Positions 32,582-40,682 of a stretch of 64,000 nucleotides of DNA are shown one piece after another. The notes under the pieces were generated by a model, which was not told the origin of the DNA, did no database searches, and worked only from the letters and a program-made list of their open reading frames with translations. Made by a program: the position numbers and the translations under genes. The stretch comes from Frigoribacterium sp. ACAM 257 (GTDB taxonomy: Bacteria > Actinomycetota > Actinomycetes > Actinomycetales > Microbacteriaceae), in NCBI RefSeq assembly GCF_007954365.1, contig NZ_VOLO01000001.1, forward strand, positions 62,001-126,000, given 5' to 3'. Every line of letters starts with the position of its first letter. The stretch's first letter is position 1.

Positions 32582-32929
32582 CTAGCGCCCCTGCCGCTTC
32601 TTGAACGGCTTGGGCTGCCCCTTGACCGCCGGGGTGCGCCCCTTGCCCTTCGACGCCTTGGCCTTGCCGCCGGCCGGGGGAGCAGGCGGCGCAGGCGGCG
32701 TCGAGGGGCTGGCCAGCTCCTCCTCGGCGACGACGACGGCTGCGCGGCCCGCCTTGGTCAGGCGGTAGGGGGAGGCGTCGCGGTCGAACAGCTTCTGCCC
32801 GAACTCGAGCTCGAGCGCCTCGATCGACGACTCGAGCTTCTGCCGCGAGATGCCGAGCTTGTCGGCCGCGACGGGGAAGTGCAGCACCTCGGCCGCGACG
32901 AGGAAGTGCCTCAGGTGGCTCGTCTTCAC
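32582..32929 (-). CDS. Stand-alone LysR-type HTH protein with basic tail
   Basis: The 115-residue protein contains a LysR winged helix (HLRHFLVAAEVLHFPVAADK to about residue 60, with QKLFDRDASPYRLTKAG) but lacks the effector-binding domain of about 200 residues. In its place is a Pro-rich linker and a Lys/Gly-rich tail (KAKASKGKGRTPAVKGQPKP). The tail resembles those of histone-like DNA-binding proteins. It could be a small chromosomal or regulatory protein. The gene lies just after the first ferritin-like gene on the same strand. Confidence 0.75.
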   Translation of the reverse strand: MKTSHLRHFLVAAEVLHFPVAADKLGISRQKLESSIEALELEFGQKLFDRDASPYRLTKAGRAAVVVAEEELASPSTPPAPPAPPAGGKAKASKGKGRTPAVKGQPKPFKKRQGR

Positions 32930-32986: not shown

Positions 32987-33814
32987 TCAGGCGACGCTGA
33001 CCGAGCCGCCCGCGGCGGGCCCGTGCGTGACGCCGAGTCCGTCGAGCGCCTTCTGGAAGATCGTCAGCCCCGACATGCCGGGCAGGTTCGAGATGTTGGC
33101 GTCGAGCTTCTCGGCGGCCTTGCGGCCCTCTTCGCCGCTCATCAGCTGGCCGAAGACGAACTTCACGTCGTCGAGCTCCATGATCGACGAGCCGACGGGC
33201 GCCCAGACCTTCTGGAGCAGGAAGCGGGTCAGCTTCTGCGCCTTCTTGCTCTTGAGCAGGCGCTCGCGGGCCTGGGAGACGTAGAACGCGACGTGGCGCG
33301 ACTCCTGGCGGGCGATGCGGACGAGCAGCTCGGCGAGCACGGGATCTTTCTCGAGGGCGGCCATGCGCTTGTACGCGGCGACGGCGGAGTACTCGTTCGC
33401 GGCACCCCACGACATGTGAACGGCGACGAAGTCGGAGCCGACGAACTTGCCGAGCAGGCCCTGCTTGACCGGGTCGAGCTTGTCGCGCCAGCCGAGCTTG
33501 AGGCGGTTCGCGCGCAGCTGGTCGTAGTCGACCTTCTCGCCGTGCACCTCGAGGATCGCGGCGAGGGCCTCGCCGTGCCAGAACTCCTCGCGGTTCCACA
33601 TCGTCATGAAGGTCGAGACGTCGCCCTCCTTGTGCGAGGGGGTCGTCAGCAGGTCGCGGGTGTAGCAGACCGTGTGGTACTCGACGTCGGCCATGTAGCG
33701 GAGCGTGCGGAGGGAGTCCGGGCTGAGCGGGTTCTCCTTGAAGTGGTCCAGGTCGAGGTCGTCCCAGGTGATGCGCTCGCTGGTGGCGGCGAACTTGTCG
33801 ATGTCGAATGCCAT
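32987..33814 (-). CDS. Ferritin-like diiron protein, intact site
   Basis: The 275-residue, all-helical protein has the ligand pattern of a four-helix-bundle diiron site: Glu45, Glu77-x-x-His80 (EFWH), Glu141 and Glu171-x-x-His174 (ESRH). Such proteins activate oxygen as desaturases, oxygenases or aldehyde-deformylating enzymes. It is the last gene of an operon with a fatty acyl reductase and sits opposite the ether-lipid genes, so an oxygen-dependent change of a fatty chain, aldehyde or ether lipid is a fair hypothesis. It is not clearly an acyl-ACP desaturase by length or motif. Confidence 0.78.
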   Translation of the reverse strand: MAFDIDKFAATSERITWDDLDLDHFKENPLSPDSLRTLRYMADVEYHTVCYTRDLLTTPSHKEGDVSTFMTMWNREEFWHGEALAAILEVHGEKVDYDQLRANRLKLGWRDKLDPVKQGLLGKFVGSDFVAVHMSWGAANEYSAVAAYKRMAALEKDPVLAELLVRIARQESRHVAFYVSQARERLLKSKKAQKLTRFLLQKVWAPVGSSIMELDDVKFVFGQLMSGEEGRKAAEKLDANISNLPGMSGLTIFQKALDGLGVTHGPAAGGSVSVA

Positions 33815-33837
33815 GTGGCGTGAGGAGGCGCGGGTCG

Positions 33838-36240
33838 TCAGACCCTGTCTCCTTCTCCTTTCGAGGTGGTGCCGACGGCGGGAGCCGTCGATGTTCCGGA
33901 CGCGGACGAACCGCGGGCACGCGACCAATCTCGGATGCTCCATCTTCTTCGGAGCGCCTCGCGTGCGAGATTGGCGTCGGGGTTGACGGCTGAGGGGTTG
34001 CCGAGCATCTCGAGCCACGCCAGGTCGGCGTGGCTGTCACCGTAGCCGTACGAGCCCGAGAGATCGATTCCCTCTTCGAGGGCCCACTGCGCGAGCCACG
34101 CGGCGCGGGCCTCGTCGACGAGCGGCGGCTGGGCGAGGTAGCCCGTGAGGACCCCGTCGCGCTCGTGCATCGTGCTCGCGACGACCTCGTCGAAGAGGTG
34201 CGCGATGGGGGTGGCCAGGGTGCCGATCGAGCCCGTCACGAGCACGGTGCGGTGCCCGGCCGCGCGGTGCTCCGCGATGCGCGCGAGCGCCTCGGGCAGT
34301 GTGTGCCGGCGGACCGTCTCGGCGTAGCCGGCCGAGCGGACGACGCCCTTCAGCCGCGAGACGGGCATGCCGGCGTAGCGGCGGAGGAACGCCCGGATGA
34401 ACTCGCCCCGGTCGCGCCCCTCGGCGCGCAGGTAGGCAGGCAGGCCTGTGAGCAGGGAGGCGACCTCGGCGGGCCAGGCCGCCTTGCGGAAGCCGTTCGA
34501 GCGCACCCAGAGGTACTGCTCGACGATGTTCGAGTCGAGCACGGTGCCCTCGAGGTCGAAGACGGCGACGACGTCGGTGCGGTGCGGGAGGGCCCTGGCG
34601 TCGAGCACGGCGCCGGCCGCGGCGGGACGCACCGAGAACGCCCGCGTCATCGCGGTGATCGACGGGAAGTGCACGGTCTGGAAGTAGTCCTCCCAGTCGA
34701 TGTCCGTGACGTCGAAGCCGATGTCGGCGGGCGCCTCCTCGGGGAGGCCGTCGTGCAGGGCCCGGGTGCGACGGTCGTCGAAGATGATCTCGGACTGCAC
34801 GTAGTGCCGGTACAGGTCGGTGAGGCTCTGCAGCGACTCGAGGTCGGCCCGCCTCGTCTGCACGTCGGTCAGGCTCGTGCGGGTGCGGGCCGTCGACGGC
34901 AGGCGGACGAGCACGCGCTCGCGCCAGTCGTTGGTGCGCTGAGCGGTCCGGATCGCGCCCTCGACCTTGCGCACGCCGGGGAAGTTCCAGGTCGGCACGG
35001 GGATGCTCGTGTGCTCGTCGCGCGGCAGCGGGTTCGCCGTGAAGAACGTCTTGAGGTTGTCGAACATCCGCAGGATGGGGAACGGGTTGCTGTTGCCCGA
35101 CGCGACGTGGAAGTACTGCGGCTCGGGGGCCGGGGCCGAGGTGACCGCGTCGACGTCACCGGCAGCAGTGCCGGCACCGGCAGCAGCCGAGGAGGCGTCG
35201 GCCGGGTTCGCCGCGACGGCCAGGATCACGTTCACCACGTAGTCCACCGGCACGATGTCGAGCACGCTGTCGGGCACCCCGGGGAACTCGGGCAGCAGGC
35301 CGCGGGCGTACGACATGATCAGCGGGTCGGCGACCTTGAAGCCGTCGATCCAGCCCGGGTAGGGGTGGCGCAGGGCGCTCTCGACGATCGCGGGGCGGAC
35401 GACGGAGAGCCGGTGGCCCTCGGCCGCCCAGATCTGCTCGGCGGCTCGCTCGGCGAAGGCCTTGGTCAGCGTGTAGACGTCGGTCCAGCCGAGGGTCTCG
35501 GCGCGGGTGCGCCCGTAGTCGACGAGACGGGCGGCCACCCAGGCGACCCGCGCCTCCTCGGCTGCCGCCGCGACCGCCTGCGGTCCGGTCTTGCCGTGGC
35601 CCGCCCGGCCCTCGGCCAGGAACCCGCGGAGCGTCTCCGGCTGGCGCGACGCCGCCTCGACGCGGGCACGGGCGTCGCGGGCTGCCGCGTGCTCGGCGCG
35701 CCAGTCGACGTCGTGGCGGAGCGCCGCCTCGGGGAAGACGCCCTTGCGGATGCCCCCGACGTACGCCGTCGACACGTGCACGACATGGGGGTCGCCGCCC
35801 GCCGCGACGAGAGCCTCGTACAGGCCGACGGCGCCGCCCACGTTCGTGTCGAACGCCTGGTCGATCGGCGGGTCGAACGACACGGTCGACGCGCTGTGGA
35901 TGACGACGTCGAGGTCGCTCGGCAGGGCGGGCAGCGCGCCGAGGGAGCTCTCGACGACCCGCAGCCGCTCGGTCAGCGCGCGCTCGACCTCGTCCGTGCC
36001 GACGCGCTCGCGCCACGACGCGAACACGGGCTTCTTGAGGAGGTGCCGCAGGCGGGCCAGGGCCGACGTGCCGGCCTTCGGGCGGATCAGCAGCGTGATG
36101 GTCGTGTCGGGGTGCGACGACAGCAGCCGCTCGAGGATCGCCTGGCCGACGAAGCCGGTGCCGCCGGTCAGCAGCACGTGCGACGAGCCGAGGCTGGTCA
36201 CGGTCGAGCCCGGGACGGAGGAGGGGGCAGGGGCGGTCAT
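33838..36240 (-). CDS. Fatty acyl-CoA reductase fused to HAD domain
   Basis: The 800-residue protein has an N-terminal male-sterility/NAD-binding-4 type reductase (TGGTGFVG at 25-32, YTLTK with Tyr256 and Lys260), which in this family reduces fatty acyl-CoA to alcohol with NADPH. From about 555 a HAD-IB domain follows: DLEGT with Asp562, VLVTGS at 666-671 and GYGDSHAD at 732-739. The second Asp of the usual DxDGT is Glu564. Its start overlaps the upstream ferritin-like gene (ATGA). In context it should supply the fatty alcohol for ether-lipid synthesis. Confidence 0.85.
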   Translation of the reverse strand: MTAPAPSSVPGSTVTSLGSSHVLLTGGTGFVGQAILERLLSSHPDTTITLLIRPKAGTSALARLRHLLKKPVFASWRERVGTDEVERALTERLRVVESSLGALPALPSDLDVVIHSASTVSFDPPIDQAFDTNVGGAVGLYEALVAAGGDPHVVHVSTAYVGGIRKGVFPEAALRHDVDWRAEHAAARDARARVEAASRQPETLRGFLAEGRAGHGKTGPQAVAAAAEEARVAWVAARLVDYGRTRAETLGWTDVYTLTKAFAERAAEQIWAAEGHRLSVVRPAIVESALRHPYPGWIDGFKVADPLIMSYARGLLPEFPGVPDSVLDIVPVDYVVNVILAVAANPADASSAAAGAGTAAGDVDAVTSAPAPEPQYFHVASGNSNPFPILRMFDNLKTFFTANPLPRDEHTSIPVPTWNFPGVRKVEGAIRTAQRTNDWRERVLVRLPSTARTRTSLTDVQTRRADLESLQSLTDLYRHYVQSEIIFDDRRTRALHDGLPEEAPADIGFDVTDIDWEDYFQTVHFPSITAMTRAFSVRPAAAGAVLDARALPHRTDVVAVFDLEGTVLDSNIVEQYLWVRSNGFRKAAWPAEVASLLTGLPAYLRAEGRDRGEFIRAFLRRYAGMPVSRLKGVVRSAGYAETVRRHTLPEALARIAEHRAAGHRTVLVTGSIGTLATPIAHLFDEVVASTMHERDGVLTGYLAQPPLVDEARAAWLAQWALEEGIDLSGSYGYGDSHADLAWLEMLGNPSAVNPDANLAREALRRRWSIRDWSRARGSSASGTSTAPAVGTTSKGEGDRV

Positions 36241-37058
36241 GCGATGAGCTTTCGTGTCACGGCGGCGCCCACGGAGGCGTCGAGTCCTGGCAGGGCGGCG
36301 ACGCGGTCGCCGACGGCGTCCGCACGCAGGTGGCCGGCGGCGCCGCCCCACACCGCGGCGTCGAAGAAGGTGCGCTCGGCGTCGGAGCGCTCGACGGCGC
36401 CCAGCGGCCAGACGGCGGTCGCCAAGGAGGCGCGGGTCTGCGTCACGGCACGGGCCGAGTCCTCGAGGCGCCAGCGGGCCTCGACGTCGAAGAACTCCTC
36501 GTGTCGCGCCTTGACGGTGCGGAGGCGCTCGACGATCGCCGTCAGCGCGGGGCTGTCGGCCCGCTCGACGAGGACGTCGTACGCGTGCCGCATCACCCAC
36601 TCGTCGACGAGGCCGGTGGTCATGTGCACGGCGACGATGGGCACGCCGCGTCCGATCGCCTCGATCGCGCGGGTGATCGGGCCTCGCCGCTCGACGGCCT
36701 CGGCGGGGCTGTGTCGGCGGGGCCCCTCCTCGACGTCCTTGAGGCGCGGCTCGCCGTTCGCCTCGAGCACGGCGTCGACGGCGTCGGCGATCCAGTACTT
36801 CTCGAACGCCCAGGTCACGAGGAACGCGGTGACCCGAGCGTCTTTGTGGGTGGCGGTGACGAGCAGGTTGCGCAGGTGCTCCATCGTCGCGCTCTCGAGA
36901 CGACCGAGGTGGCGCAGGAGGCGGAGCTCGTCAGGGCCGAGCGGCGCGGCCTCGAATGGGGCCAGGTCGAGCTCGGCGCGGAGCGTGCCCTGGGCGGTCA
37001 GGGTGAACTCGCGGATGTCGAAGGTGCTCGAGTCGTAGGGGTCGCGATCGGTCGTCAT
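36237..37058 (-). CDS. Ferritin-like protein with degenerate diiron site
   Basis: The 273-residue protein aligns along its length with the ferritin-like protein at 32987-33814 (for example HMTTGLVDEWV against HMSWGAANEYS). Both ExxH motifs are altered: the first reads Lys87 and Ile90, the second keeps Glu187 but has Phe190 in place of His. It therefore probably binds no or only one iron and may act as a partner subunit. It is the first gene of its operon with a GGAGGA ribosome site, and is divergent from the ether-lipid reductase gene. Confidence 0.72.
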   Translation of the reverse strand: MTTDRDPYDSSTFDIREFTLTAQGTLRAELDLAPFEAAPLGPDELRLLRHLGRLESATMEHLRNLLVTATHKDARVTAFLVTWAFEKYWIADAVDAVLEANGEPRLKDVEEGPRRHSPAEAVERRGPITRAIEAIGRGVPIVAVHMTTGLVDEWVMRHAYDVLVERADSPALTAIVERLRTVKARHEEFFDVEARWRLEDSARAVTQTRASLATAVWPLGAVERSDAERTFFDAAVWGGAAGHLRADAVGDRVAALPGLDASVGAAVTRKLIA

Positions 37059-37131
37059 GGCTGTGTTCCTCCGGGGGACCTCATCGCGGTGGTGAACGGG
37101 ACACGATGCACGCAGTTTCCCGACAAGACCG

Positions 37132-37137
37132 TATCGT
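37132..37137 (+). promoter_or_regulatory. -10 box of leaderless ether-lipid operon
   Basis: TATCGT ends seven bases before the ATG at 37145 and no ribosome site is visible, which fits a leaderless mRNA. Confidence 0.6.
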
Positions 37138-37144
37138 AAGCGGC

Positions 37145-37966
37145 ATGGCAACAGCGCTCGTCACCGGGGGCACGTCCGGCATCGGAGCCGAATTCGCCCG
37201 CCAACTCGCCGCCCGCGGCTGGGACCTCGTCCTGGTCGCCCGCGACCCCGCCCGACTCGACCTGACCGCCCTCGAGCTGAGGGCCCTCGGACGCGACGTC
37301 GAGGTGCTCTCCGCCGACCTCGGCGACCGTGCCGACGTCGACCGGGTGGCCGCCCGGCTCGCCGAGGTCGACCGCCCCGTCGACCTGCTCGTCAACAACG
37401 CCGGCTTCGGCGTGCACGAGCCGCTGACGAGCACGGACACGGCCGTGCACGACCGCGCGTTCGAGGTGATGGTGCGGAGCGTGCTGGTGCTGTCCGCGTC
37501 CGCGGGGCGCGCCATGCGCCTCCGCGGCTCGGGCCACATCGTGAACGTCGGCAGCGTCGCGGGCTTCATGGCGATGGGCAGCTACTCGTCGATCAAGGCC
37601 TGGGTCAACTCGTTCAGCGAGGGCCTCGCGGTCGAGCTTAAGGGCAGCGGAGTGGGCGTCACGGTGCTGCAGCCGGGGTGGGTGCGCACGGAGTTCCATC
37701 AGCGCGCCGGCATCAGGTCGTCGTCCATACCCAACTCGATGTGGCTCAGCGCCGAACGACTGGTGTCCGCGTGCCTGCGCGACGTCGAGAGAGGCAAGGT
37801 GGTGTCCATGCCCACGCTTCGGTACAAGGTGCTGATCGGCTTGGTCAAGCACGCCCCGGGCAGCGCCGTGCGCGCCGTGTCCGGCGCCATCTCGTCGAGC
37901 CGCCGTGCGCCCGCGGACGCCGTCGCCGGCGGTGCTGCCGGCACGGACGCTCCGGTGGAGCGGTGA
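37145..37966 (+). CDS. Short-chain reductase, candidate acyl/alkyl-DHAP reductase
   Basis: The 273-residue classical SDR has TGGTSGIG at 7-14, NNAG at 84-87, Ser137 and Tyr147-x-x-x-Lys151. It resembles DltE/YqjQ-type and DHRS7-like reductases. The animal pathway uses such a reductase to turn 1-alkyl-dihydroxyacetone phosphate into 1-alkyl-glycerol 3-phosphate, and this gene is first in an operon with the synthase, so that role is likely by context. Its stop overlaps the acyltransferase start (GTGA). Confidence 0.82.
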   Translation: MATALVTGGTSGIGAEFARQLAARGWDLVLVARDPARLDLTALELRALGRDVEVLSADLGDRADVDRVAARLAEVDRPVDLLVNNAGFGVHEPLTSTDTAVHDRAFEVMVRSVLVLSASAGRAMRLRGSGHIVNVGSVAGFMAMGSYSSIKAWVNSFSEGLAVELKGSGVGVTVLQPGWVRTEFHQRAGIRSSSIPNSMWLSAERLVSACLRDVERGKVVSMPTLRYKVLIGLVKHAPGSAVRAVSGAISSSRRAPADAVAGGAAGTDAPVER

Positions 37967-38979
37967 CGGTGGCCCGCGACGAGCGACCCGACGAGACCGC
38001 GCAGCCTGCCGGGTCGGAGTCCTCCTCCTCGGCCTCGTCGTCCTCGTCCGCCTCGTCGTCCTCCGACGCTCGTGCCGCTCGTCCTCGCCGCGACGCCGTC
38101 GCGCGTGCCGCCGTCGACGTCACGGACCGCTTCAGCTCACGCGGCCACGCCATGGCCCGCTACGTCGCCCAGCGCGTCGTGCTCAAGCCCACCATCTGGT
38201 CGATCACGAGCGTCACCGTCATCGACCGCGACCGGCTCAAGGGCGTCGAGGGGGGCTTCATCGTGGTCGCGAACCACTCCAGCCACCTCGACGCGCCCCT
38301 CATCCTCGGAGCGCTGCCCCGCCGCCTGGCCCGCTACCTCGCGACGGGCGCCGCCGCGGACTACTTCTTCGACGTGCCGTGGCGCCGCAAGCTGACCGAG
38401 CTGTTCTTCAACGCCTTCCCCGTGCAGCGCGGGTCGTCGACCGCGACGCCCGCGGGCACGCCGGGCTCGTCGACGCCCCAGGCTCCGGGCGCGGTCGCCG
38501 CGGCGGCAGCAGCGGCCGCGCACCCGTCGACGGGCGCGACGGCCGTCCCGTCCGCGGCGCGGCGCAAGGCCGCCGCCAAGGCCGCCGCCCGCCGCCGCGC
38601 CGGCCAGCCGACCGTCAGCGCCCGTTCGCTGCTCGAGCGCGGCTACCCGGTACTGGTGTTCCCGGAGGGCACCCGGTCCAAGGACGGCACCGTCGCCTCC
38701 TTCAAGCCCGGTGCCGCGGCGCTCGCCGCCGCCTGCGACGTGCCGATCATCCCGCTCGCGCTGATCGGCGCGCACATCGCGCACCCGCGCGGCTCGAGCT
38801 GGCCGCGCCCCGGTCGGCTGCCCGTCGGAGTCGCGTTCGGCGACCCGATGCGCCCCGAGCCCGGCGAGACGCCCCTCGACTTCTCCGCTCGGCTCCGCGC
38901 CGAGATCCTGCGTCTCAAGGACGCGAACACCGCCCGCATCCTGGGCCCAGAACACCCCTCTGAAGGAGCACGACCGTGA
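37963..38979 (+). CDS. PlsC-type glycerolipid acyltransferase
   Basis: The 338-residue protein has the HX4D catalytic motif (NHSSHLD, His105 and Asp110) and a later FPEGTRSKDG motif of 1-acylglycerol-3-phosphate acyltransferases. A Ser-rich head (about 18-34) and an Ala/Lys/Arg-rich insertion (about 150-215) are unusual. In this operon it could acylate DHAP before, or alkyl-glycerol phosphate after, the ether-forming step. It overlaps both neighbours through GTGA junctions. Confidence 0.87.
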   Translation: MTVARDERPDETAQPAGSESSSSASSSSSASSSSDARAARPRRDAVARAAVDVTDRFSSRGHAMARYVAQRVVLKPTIWSITSVTVIDRDRLKGVEGGFIVVANHSSHLDAPLILGALPRRLARYLATGAAADYFFDVPWRRKLTELFFNAFPVQRGSSTATPAGTPGSSTPQAPGAVAAAAAAAAHPSTGATAVPSAARRKAAAKAAARRRAGQPTVSARSLLERGYPVLVFPEGTRSKDGTVASFKPGAAALAAACDVPIIPLALIGAHIAHPRGSSWPRPGRLPVGVAFGDPMRPEPGETPLDFSARLRAEILRLKDANTARILGPEHPSEGARP

Positions 38980-40682
38980 CCGACGTCCAGAACAAGCCCC
39001 AGACCACGGCCGCCGACCACGGCGTCGCGCACATGAAGTGGTGGGGCTGGGGCGTCGAGGGCGTCGCGTTCCACCACGAGGACAAGCCCGGGTTCGCCCC
39101 GTTCGTGAAGAAGATCGTGGGCGTCGAGCTGACCCAGGGCCAGCACGACACGGGCCTCGACTTCGCTCAGCTGACCGTCCCGGCCTCGCGCGCCTCGGCC
39201 GAGGTGCTCGACTCGCTCGTGCAGATCGTCGGCTCCGAGCACGTCGACCAGGGCGACCACGACCGCGTCGTGCACACCTACGGCAAGAGCATCCGCGACC
39301 TGATCCGCATCCGCGCGGGCATCCTCGAGCGCGTGCCGGACCTCGTCGTCTACCCCGCCGACGAGGCGGAGGTGCAGCAGATCGTCGACCTCGCCGTCGC
39401 GAGCGACGTCGTGCTGATCCCCTTCGGCGGCGGCAGCAACATCGTGGGCAGCCTCGAGCCGATGCCGGCCGAGGAGCGCACCGTCGTCTCGCTCGACATG
39501 GGCCGCCTGTCGAAGGTGCTCGACATCGACGAGGACGGCGGGCTCGCCCGCATCCAGGCCGGCGGCCAGGGCCCCGACCTCGAAGAACAGCTCAACGCCC
39601 GCGGCTGGACCCTCGGCCACTTCCCCGACAGCTTCACGCACTCGACGATGGGGGGCTGGGTCGCGACCCGCTCCTCCGGCATGCAGAGCGACAAGTACGG
39701 CGACATCGCCGACATCACCAAGGGGCTGCGCGTCGTGCGCCCCGGGGGAGTCCTGGCGATCCGCGCGGTGCCCAGCGCCTCCACCGGGCCGTCGCTCCGC
39801 GAGATGATCATCGGCTCGGAGGGGCGCCTCGGCGTCATCACGGAGGTCACCGCCCAGGTGCACCGCCTGCCCGAGAAGCGCGAGATCCTCGCCTACCTGT
39901 TCCCGTCGTGGCACGACGGCCTCGCCGCCATGCAGGCGATCGCCGAGAGCGACGCGCGCCCGTCGGTGACCCGCGTCTCGGACGCGCACGAGACGGCGTT
40001 CTCGTTCGCGACCTCGAAGGCGAGCACGGGCATCGCGAAGGTCGTGAACGACGCGCTGCCGAAGGTGCTCAAGGCGAAGGGCTGGGACGTCGATGCGATG
40101 TGCCTGTCGTTCATCGGCTACGAGGGCAGCCCCGAGCACGTCGCCCACACCCAGAAGGCGGTCGCCAAGATCGTCAAGGCGAACAAGGGCATGGGCGTCG
40201 GCAAGGGCCCGGGCAAGCTCTACGACCAGAAGAAGTTCGACACGCCCTACCTGCGCGACTTCTTCATGGACCACGGAGGCGCCGCCGACGTCTCCGAGAC
40301 CGCGGCGCCCTGGTCGAAGCTGCGCGCCGTCTCGTCGCGCGTCTACGCCGCCGCCAACCAGGCGTTCGACCAGATCGGCGTGCAGGGCTGGATCATGGGC
40401 CACCTGTCGCACTCGTACCACTCGGGCGCGTGCCTCTACTTCACCTTCGCGTTCGAGCACGGCGAGCAGGCCGAGGCGGAGTACGACGTCGTGAAGCACG
40501 CCATCCAGCAGGCGTTCATCGACACCGGTGCGACCGTGTCGCACCACCACGGCGTCGGCCTCGAGCACCAGCCGTGGCTCGCGCAGGACGTCTCGCCCGA
40601 GGGCGTCGCCGTCATGCAGGGGCTGTTCGACTCGGCCGACCCCGGGCGCGTGTTCAACCCGGGCAAGGTCACCGGCGCGTAG
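38976..40682 (+). CDS. Alkylglycerone-phosphate synthase homologue
   Basis: The 568-residue FAD enzyme matches AGPS, which swaps the acyl chain of acyl-DHAP for a fatty alcohol and so makes the ether bond. Signatures visible are KWWGWG near residue 21, the FAD site PFGGGSNIVGS at 149-159, STMGGWVATRSSGMQSDKYG at 223-242, GSEGRLGVITEV and the late SHHHGVG. These distinguish it from generic lactate or glycolate oxidases. It is the last gene of the leaderless operon. Its presence with an acyl reductase, SDR and PlsC implies an ether-lipid pathway. Confidence 0.88.
   Translation: MTDVQNKPQTTAADHGVAHMKWWGWGVEGVAFHHEDKPGFAPFVKKIVGVELTQGQHDTGLDFAQLTVPASRASAEVLDSLVQIVGSEHVDQGDHDRVVHTYGKSIRDLIRIRAGILERVPDLVVYPADEAEVQQIVDLAVASDVVLIPFGGGSNIVGSLEPMPAEERTVVSLDMGRLSKVLDIDEDGGLARIQAGGQGPDLEEQLNARGWTLGHFPDSFTHSTMGGWVATRSSGMQSDKYGDIADITKGLRVVRPGGVLAIRAVPSASTGPSLREMIIGSEGRLGVITEVTAQVHRLPEKREILAYLFPSWHDGLAAMQAIAESDARPSVTRVSDAHETAFSFATSKASTGIAKVVNDALPKVLKAKGWDVDAMCLSFIGYEGSPEHVAHTQKAVAKIVKANKGMGVGKGPGKLYDQKKFDTPYLRDFFMDHGGAADVSETAAPWSKLRAVSSRVYAAANQAFDQIGVQGWIMGHLSHSYHSGACLYFTFAFEHGEQAEAEYDVVKHAIQQAFIDTGATVSHHHGVGLEHQPWLAQDVSPEGVAVMQGLFDSADPGRVFNPGKVTGA

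What the first reader, a model, noticed from the sequence alone, without database searches (positions are those of the whole stretch)
32987..40682. Candidate aerobic ether-lipid (plasmalogen-like) gene cluster in an actinobacterium
Two divergent, tightly overlapping operons hold a probable alkylglycerone-phosphate synthase, PlsC acyltransferase, SDR reductase and fatty acyl-CoA reductase, all steps of the animal/peroxisomal ether-lipid pathway, plus two ferritin-like proteins that could add an oxygen-dependent step such as forming a vinyl ether. Seen: motifs and gene order. Known: AGPS, FAR and reductase roles in eukaryotes and myxobacteria. Inferred: that they act together here. I know of no such cluster described for this group.
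Basis: partly seen in the sequence, partly recalled or inferred. Interest (0 to 1): 0.9.

Follow-up and report, generated by a model that had tools for sequence, protein, structure and literature searches.

The report
Aerobic plasmalogen gene cluster, new desaturase?
An oxygen-breathing bacterium carries a conserved six-gene set that looks like the animal pathway for ether lipids (plasmalogens) but has a pair of unrelated iron proteins where the known last enzyme would be, which may be a previously unrecognised way to make these lipids.

Summary
All six genes of the finding are real. The window is from Frigoribacterium (Microbacteriaceae). The AGPS call holds: 41% identity to Dictyostelium AGPS, the tested catalytic residues conserved, and a tree that groups it with eukaryotic AGPS. 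The FAR also carries a HAD domain. The two "ferritin-like" proteins are paralogues with the acyl-ACP-desaturase fold: FerA keeps all six diiron ligands, FerB has lost three. The cluster recurs in the same order in 62 of the 80 best named loci and lies whole on a Streptomyces plasmid; 54 of 55 AGPS-clade genomes of the family have a FerA/FerB-type protein. In 23 FerA-FerB genomes neither CarF/PEDS1 nor PlsA, the known vinyl-ether enzymes, was detected. Yet Subtercola, Frigoribacterium and Agreia are reported to yield dimethyl acetals, the mark of plasmalogens. Best reading: an aerobic AGPS-type plasmalogen pathway whose 1'-desaturase is a FerA-FerB diiron pair instead of CarF. The desaturase role is inferred, not shown. 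Against: FerA-FerB occur without AGPS in five family genomes and widely in the phylum, and some cluster-bearing species or genera were reported without the acetal.

The parts
32987..33814 (-). FerA: 275 aa diiron protein with the acyl-ACP-desaturase-like fold; proposed catalytic subunit of a 1'-desaturase (ligands E45, E77-x-x-H80, E141, E171-x-x-H174)
33838..36240 (-). FAR: 800 aa fatty acyl-CoA/ACP reductase with part of the Sterile domain, fused to a HAD-IB phosphatase-like domain
   Evidence: Pfam (the Sterile match is below its cut-off); PDB 7eoz fatty acyl-CoA reductase 6.4e-46 over residues 16-529; Y256/K260 37 of 37 rows
36237..37058 (-). FerB: 273 aa degenerate FerA paralogue, proposed non-catalytic partner
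37059..37144 (.). 86-bp divergent intergenic region, presumed promoter region of both operons
   Evidence: sequence; no sigma-70-type consensus match or terminator found
37145..37966 (+). SDR reductase, proposed acyl/alkyl-DHAP reductase
   Evidence: PF00106 1.3e-41; S137/Y147/K151 37 of 37
37963..38979 (+). PlsC-type acyltransferase, proposed DHAP and/or sn-2 acylation; has a long low-complexity insert
   Evidence: PF01553 8.8e-21; HX4D present in 36 of 37 rows, one gap
38976..40682 (+). AGPS: alkylglycerone-phosphate synthase
   Evidence: PDB 2uuu 3e-118, 4bby 2.5e-82 against 9e-22 for glycolate oxidase; tree; catalytic residues 39 of 39

Best explanation
The cluster encodes an aerobic, AGPS-type plasmalogen pathway. 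FAR reduces branched acyl thioesters to fatty alcohol; an acyltransferase (PlsC or a housekeeping enzyme) makes acyl-DHAP; AGPS swaps the acyl for the alcohol, giving alkyl-DHAP; the SDR reduces it to 1-O-alkyl-G3P; PlsC adds the sn-2 acyl chain. The lipid then goes into PG, cardiolipin or glycolipids. FerA, a diiron protein of the acyl-ACP-desaturase fold, working with its metal-site-degenerate paralogue FerB, uses O2 to desaturate the alkyl chain at C1'-C2' and makes the vinyl ether, the job that CarF/PEDS1 does in animals and myxobacteria. Shown here by sequence: gene content, AGPS kinship and catalytic residues, conservation as a unit, FerA fold and ligands, FerB degeneration, no CarF-family or PlsA match in the genomes searched. 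From papers: dimethyl acetals in cluster-bearing genera. Inferred: each reaction, the FerA-FerB complex, its substrate and the order of steps.
For: AGPS identity: (41% to Dictyostelium, 32% to guinea pig), tree 97/95 with eukaryotic AGPS, residues R427, Y488, H523-525, R333 39 of 39. Conservation as a unit; whole cluster on a Streptomyces plasmid. Co-occurrence in 199 family genomes: AGPS clade and FerA/FerB-type match both 54, AGPS clade only 1, FerA only 6, neither 138 (recounted in 118; Fisher 1.2e-40, not corrected for kinship; in one of the 54, G113, only a FerB-level match was found). FerA fold and ligands. FerB. No PF10520 match in 23 of 23 and no PF09989 match in 23 of 23 FerA-FerB genomes (all six genes were seen in 13 of these 23), while PF10520 rings in 12 of 296 actinobacterial genomes and PF09989 in 4 of 14 controls. 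Dimethyl acetals: Subtercola 21-29% of peak area (PMC5945732), F. faeni and F. adelgis (PMC12823222), Agreia up to 4%. 12 of 12 genomes of the genus identified as Subtercola have FerA and FerB, and three of them were seen with all six genes. Four Subtercola type strains that give acetals give 2OH-C14:0 by MIDI (PMC9287328), and PMC7472656 showed by GC-MS that this MIDI peak was anteiso-C15:0 dimethyl acetal in Kineococcus.
Against: FerA-FerB occur without an AGPS-clade gene in 6 of 60 positive family genomes: five look real (G025, G057, G079, G102, G142, each listed 100% complete), one is near a contig end (G107). Eleven of the 80 best named loci hold only FerA and FerB within reach. In a phylum sample of 396 genomes only 2 of 22 FerA-positive ones also have an AGPS-like match at 1e-100 (G000 and G559). 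The distant FerA-like proteins have no AGPS nearby in 18 of 18 loci. Two genomes of another family carry AGPS at 57-58% identity with no FerA and no FAR nearby. F. endophyticum and F. salinisoli were reported without the acetal although an F. endophyticum locus has the full cluster (L075). S. endophyticus was reported without 2OH-C14:0 although 12 of 12 genomes of its genus have FerA (S. endophyticus itself was not singled out). PMC5945732 says Frondihabitans lacks dimethyl acetals although three of three Frondihabitans loci have the cluster. My explanation, a misread 2-OH peak, was not shown for that genus, and it is weakened because F. adelgis and S. lobariae are listed with both a 14:0 2-OH and an acetal peak. 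Known acyl-ACP-desaturase-fold enzymes act on carrier-bound acyl chains (recalled). The acyltransferase for DHAP is not identified.
Confidence: 0.6

Rival explanations
1. The AGPS/FAR/SDR/PlsC genes make ether lipids, but FerA-FerB is an ordinary acyl desaturase (for example for anteiso-C15:1 or another acyl chain) that merely travels with the cluster; the vinyl ether is made by an enzyme elsewhere in the genome, or the lipids are saturated alkyl ethers.
For: Closest fold is acyl-ACP desaturase. FerA-like proteins exist without AGPS in the family and across the phylum. One paper lists C18:1 in all five Subtercola strains (0.8-76.7%).
Against: Subtercola has FerA and FerB in 12 of 12 genomes, but anteiso-15:1 was absent or trace in all four species of another paper's table, while acetals were 21-29%. 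Saturated alkyl ethers give no dimethyl acetal (established chemistry, recalled). Neither known vinyl-ether enzyme was detected.
Confidence: 0.25
2. FAR makes fatty aldehyde and FerA acts on it like a cyanobacterial aldehyde-deformylating oxygenase, giving hydrocarbons; the acetals in the literature come from free aldehydes.
Against: Leaves AGPS, SDR and PlsC unexplained; acetal levels above 20% of peak area are improbable for free aldehyde (inference).
Confidence: 0.06
3. The AGPS-like protein is another FAD oxidase and the cluster is not about ether lipids.
For: Actinobacteria hold many AGPS-like FAD oxidases annotated only as FAD-binding oxidoreductase, and most of those in the tree share the same catalytic residues.
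Against: Tree 97/95 with eukaryotic AGPS apart from those sampled and from GlcD; 39 of 39 catalytic residues; linkage to FAR, SDR and PlsC.
Confidence: 0.04

Closest known systems
Animal/peroxisomal plasmalogen pathway (FAR1, GNPAT, AGPS, PexRAP, then PEDS1/TMEM189; as described in PMC9131029)
   Same: AGPS relative with the same catalytic residues; FAR; SDR reductase; acyltransferase; O2 and iron proposed for the vinyl ether
   Different: All in one divergent six-gene cluster; no PEDS1 match; FerA-FerB pair instead; FAR fused to a HAD domain; acyltransferase is PlsC-type
Myxococcus xanthus plasmalogen genes (MXAN_1676 AGPS, MXAN_1675 FAR-acyltransferase, MXAN_1674, elb operon, CarF; as reviewed in PMC9131029)
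   Same: Bacterial, aerobic, AGPS next to FAR; a HAD protein (ElbB) is also involved there
   Different: CarF makes the vinyl ether there; no PF10520 match in the 23 FerA-FerB genomes tested; different gene set and phylum
Anaerobic PlsA/PlsR plasmalogen synthesis (Jackson et al. 2021, as described in PMC9702350)
   Same: End product is the alkenyl ether
   Different: O2-independent reduction of diacyl lipids; PF09989 (the PlsA domain, recalled) had no match in 23 of 23 genomes
Acyl-ACP desaturases (stearoyl-ACP desaturase, M. tuberculosis DesA2)
   Same: Fold; FerA's 2 Glu + 2 ExxH ligand set (ligand pattern of the desaturases recalled)
   Different: 13-17% identity in the top ten fold matches; below the Pfam cut-off; accompanied by the ligand-poor paralogue FerB; genomic context is ether-lipid

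Membership tests
Alkylglycerone-phosphate synthase (AGPS) | Groups with characterised AGPS rather than other FAD-linked oxidases | tested here: met
   phmmer 3e-118 / 2.5e-82 against 9e-22; tree 97/95 (22 rows, the two eukaryotic rows are partial and have long branches)
Alkylglycerone-phosphate synthase (AGPS) | Catalytic residues of guinea pig AGPS (R419, R515, Y578, HHH615-617; roles recalled) | tested here: met
   39 of 39 rows: window, 36 of the 40 wide loci (4 distant ones left out), Dictyostelium, guinea pig. Several more distant AGPS-like oxidases also keep the Arg and His motifs, so this alone is not specific
Alkylglycerone-phosphate synthase (AGPS) | Makes alkyl-DHAP | not testable with these tools
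   needs an enzyme assay
Aerobic plasmalogen pathway, AGPS/FAR/PEDS1 type | FAR and AGPS present together with a reductase | tested here: met
Aerobic plasmalogen pathway, AGPS/FAR/PEDS1 type | PEDS1/CarF (PF10520) desaturase | tested here: not met
   0 of 23 genomes (its 14 controls did not ring either); the same model rings in 12 of 296 Actinomycetota
Aerobic plasmalogen pathway, AGPS/FAR/PEDS1 type | Alkenyl lipids in the organism | not testable with these tools
   papers only: dimethyl acetals in Subtercola, Frigoribacterium, Agreia
Anaerobic PlsA/PlsR | PlsA domain DUF2229 (PF09989; link to PlsA recalled) | tested here: not met
   0 of 23 genomes; 4 of 14 control genomes ring
Acyl-ACP desaturase PF03405 | Reaches the family's curated score | tested here: not met
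   window FerA 20.4 bits against 22.7; all 12 members of A1 match at E up to 0.1, best E 6.9e-05 (scores of the other members not shown)
Acyl-ACP desaturase PF03405 | Fold and six-ligand diiron set | tested here: met

The most novel reading that the evidence does not exclude
FerA-FerB is a third, independently evolved way to make the vinyl-ether bond of plasmalogens: a two-protein diiron 1'-desaturase (one catalytic subunit, one metal-site-dead partner) of the acyl-ACP-desaturase fold, spread through aerobic actinobacteria as a mobile six-gene cassette.
Probability: 0.55. Interest if true: 0.9.

Novelty: new variant of a known kind. Interest (0 to 1): 0.82.

Why it matters
A 2022 review calls myxobacteria exceptional among aerobic bacteria in making plasmalogens and reports true CarF homologues beyond them only in Leptospira (PMC9131029). 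That acetals in aerobic Subtercola and Kineococcus hint at plasmalogens is already in print (PMC7472656), and AGPS homologues were noted in actinobacterial MAGs (PMC11868695), but I found no gene set proposed for it. If this cluster works as proposed, plasmalogens are common in aerobic Microbacteriaceae, old chemotaxonomic oddities have a genetic cause, and nature has a second O2-dependent solution to a step whose animal gene was found only around 2019-2020. It also gives a compact cassette and a desaturase with no predicted membrane part (inference from its fold) to study.

Tried and rejected
Rejected: glycolate/lactate oxidase identity of the AGPS. Rejected: alkane pathway as the main reading (leaves three genes unexplained). 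Tried with little or no result: phage families for FerA/FerB (one weak unknown); sequence search of FerA and its profile against the PDB (only marginal hits, DesA2 among them); promoter scan. Two of four flank queries (an epimerase and CysK) were translated in a wrong frame by me and say nothing. Passages of papers on Herbiconiux, Salinibacterium/Agromyces and Antarctic isolates had no acetal data. I could not decide the cluster status of Lacisediminihabitans and Lysinibacter, whose trace C14:0 2-OH might make them negative controls, nor of Kineococcus: no FerA hit in the plasmid collection came from it, and its chromosome was not reached. So there is no tested negative control genus for the link between cluster and acetals. 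Neighbours of stand-alone FerA-FerB (representatives) are a Na/H exchanger, LigD, BrkB, ABC1, a flavin reductase and a PlsC; they suggest no clear other pathway.

Papers: I saw passages of PMC5945732, PMC9287328, PMC7033078, PMC12823222, PMC6518244, PMC10303725, PMC7472656, PMC10878007, PMC10713820 (terms not found), PMC10011130, PMC11868695 and PMC9131029 (of the last also section 10 whole), and part 1 of 3 of PMC9702350. Mannisto 2000, Kampfer 2000, Si 2017 and Jackson 2021 were not read; their data come through those papers. Not-in-print statement: searches. One search (plasmalogen with Microbacteriaceae) gave one paper, a blood-microbiome review seen in the listing only; of the 88, 43 and 254 papers I saw 30, 15 and 12 listed. 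The library lacks most subscription journals.
Full report
What is there. The window (G000:C6:62001-126000) is from Frigoribacterium: its FerA is 100% identical to that of Frigoribacterium sp. PhB116 and F. faeni AS3.2. Six genes form two divergent operons, 32987-37058 minus and 37145-40682 plus, with 4-bp overlaps between FerB/FAR, SDR/PlsC and PlsC/AGPS. Domains: FAR (NAD_binding_4, a sub-threshold part of the Sterile domain) fused to a HAD domain, SDR, PlsC-type acyltransferase, FAD_binding_4 plus FAD-oxidase_C; the two ferritin-like proteins have no Pfam match over a cut-off.

AGPS. Against solved structures the best hits are Dictyostelium AGPS (3e-118) and guinea pig AGPS (2.5e-82); D-lactate dehydrogenase and glycolate oxidase follow at 4e-22 to 9e-22. 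Identity is 41% and 32% over about 470 residues, 27% to the other FAD oxidase of the same genome. In a 22-row tree the cluster clade (11 rows) joins the two eukaryotic AGPS with support 97/95, apart from the other AGPS-like oxidases sampled and from GlcD; the eukaryotic rows are partial and have long branches. The residues matching guinea pig R419, R515, Y578 and H615-617 are the same in 39 of 39 rows (roles recalled). A neighbouring tyrosine, Y481, is lost only in the four Subtercola and Labedella rows.

Conservation. In the same 199 Microbacteriaceae genomes the AGPS clade (E below 1e-150) occurs in 55 and a FerA/FerB-type match in 60: both 54, AGPS only 1 (G101, 85% complete), FerA only 6, neither 138 (recounted in 118; Fisher p 1.2e-40, not corrected for kinship). 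In one of the 54 (G113, 77% complete) the only match is at FerB level. Four genomes with only a distant AGPS-like protein (2e-94 to 2e-85) were dropped from the AGPS count. Of 40 wide loci (40 of the 58 other genomes matched) 34 hold all six genes in the same order, 2 hold four (their Fer pair lies about 7 kb beyond FAR) and 4 hold only the distant AGPS. Of the 80 best named loci (254 relatives were found), 62 hold all six, all 62 in the same order and strands; 11 hold only FerA and FerB, 7 other subsets, some on short contigs. The 62 include Frigoribacterium, Frondihabitans, Agreia, Glaciihabitans, Herbiconiux, Salinibacterium, Labedella, Kocuria palustris and a Ruaniaceae genome. The whole cluster, in the same order, lies on a 2.35-Mb plasmid of Streptomyces sp. 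NBC_01450 (FerA 61%, AGPS 69% identity). The flanking CysE and LysR-type stub are found almost only with Frigoribacterium loci (12 of 13 and 13 of 14 hits among 120 loci). So the six genes travel as a unit.

Chemistry in the literature. Dimethyl acetals arise when plasmalogens are methanolysed in acid. PMC5945732 tables them at 22.1, 26.5, 28.6 and 20.7% (my sums; traces not counted) for S. vilae, S. frigoramans, S. boreus and S. lobariae, and mentions up to 4% in Agreia. PMC12823222 reports anteiso-15:0 aldehyde/DMA in F. faeni and F. adelgis, not in two other Frigoribacterium species. PMC5945732 says Frondihabitans lacks acetals but has 14:0 2-OH as a major acid. In PMC7472656 the MIDI peak called C14:0 2OH in Kineococcus was shown by GC-MS to be anteiso-C15:0 dimethyl acetal, and MIDI profiles of the same four Subtercola type strains show 2OH-C14:0 (3.9-15.6%). 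F. faeni has 17.0% and Glaciihabitans tibetensis 4.2% C14:0 2OH; the loci seen from F. faeni (two), G. tibetensis (one) and Frondihabitans (three) all have the full cluster. That the 2-OH peak is a misread acetal in these is my inference; against it, F. adelgis and S. lobariae are listed with both kinds of peak, and S. endophyticus had no 2OH-C14:0.

No known vinyl-ether enzyme found. In 23 genomes with FerA and FerB (4 Frigoribacterium, 3 Frondihabitans, 12 Subtercola, 1 Glaciihabitans, 3 Agreia; named by kinship and contig length; all six genes seen in 13 of them) there is no CarF/PEDS1-family match (PF10520) and no PlsA-domain match (PF09989). Both models can ring: PF10520 in 12 of 296 Actinomycetota, though in none of the 14 controls; PF09989 in 4 of 14 controls.

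Mechanism (inferred). FAR to fatty alcohol; acyl-DHAP by PlsC or another acyltransferase; AGPS to alkyl-DHAP; SDR to alkyl-G3P; PlsC at sn-2; head-group steps; FerA-FerB with O2 and an unknown electron donor to the 1'-alkene. The HAD domain may remove a phosphate (motif DLEGT; its D and E are kept in 37 of 37 rows); its role is open. Whether FerA acts on a lyso intermediate or on finished lipid is not known.

Against it. FerA-FerB without AGPS in five family genomes listed as complete; in 396 genomes of the phylum only 2 of 22 FerA-positive ones have an AGPS-like match at 1e-100, in G559 on different contigs; the distant FerA-like loci have no AGPS nearby in 18 of 18; AGPS at 57-58% identity without FerA in two genomes of another family; and cluster-bearing species or genera reported without acetals. 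FerA may therefore be a broader desaturase recruited to this pathway. No genus without the cluster was checked for acetals.

Verdict. Ether-lipid cluster: about 0.9. Plasmalogen product: about 0.75. FerA-FerB as the 1'-desaturase: about 0.55-0.6. Compared with the animal and myxobacterial pathways it is the same kind of route with a different last enzyme, so I file it as a new variant of a known kind.

Noticed in passing
L048:9475-11055; also L070, L237, L056, L057, L138, L113: In the Subtercola (L048, L070, L237) and Labedella (L056, L057, L138) loci a LarA-like protein (PF09861 Lar_N 2.1e-26 in L048; relatives 51-77%) lies between FAR and FerA; Actinoplanes L113 has one (43%) near its FAR. 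The AGPS of L048, L070, L056 and L057 has lost the otherwise conserved Y481.
   Followed up: partly
   Followed up: partly
L213 (NZ_CP109481.1, about 1.074-1.083 Mb): Complete six-gene cluster on a large linear Streptomyces plasmid predicted to be mobilizable; PLSDB lists no gene there.
   Followed up: yes
window 32582-32929, minus strand: A 115-aa protein with only the LysR-type HTH (PF00126), downstream of FerA, 92-100% identical in 13 Frigoribacterium loci; a possible small regulator without effector domain.
   Followed up: partly
literature (PMC5945732, PMC9287328, PMC7472656, PMC7033078): The MIDI call 'C14:0 2-OH' in Microbacteriaceae may often be misread anteiso-C15:0 dimethyl acetal, as shown for Kineococcus; some strains are listed with both.
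   Followed up: partly
L218, L219, L220: PF10520 (CarF/PEDS1-family) proteins occur in 12 of 296 actinobacterial genomes, 11 of them in one family (f18), although the 2022 review reports true CarF outside myxobacteria only in Leptospira; they may be of the plant FAD4-like kind.
   Followed up: no
window 38430-38620: The PlsC protein carries a long Ala/Pro/Ser-rich low-complexity insert between its HX4D and FPEGTRS motifs.
   Followed up: no
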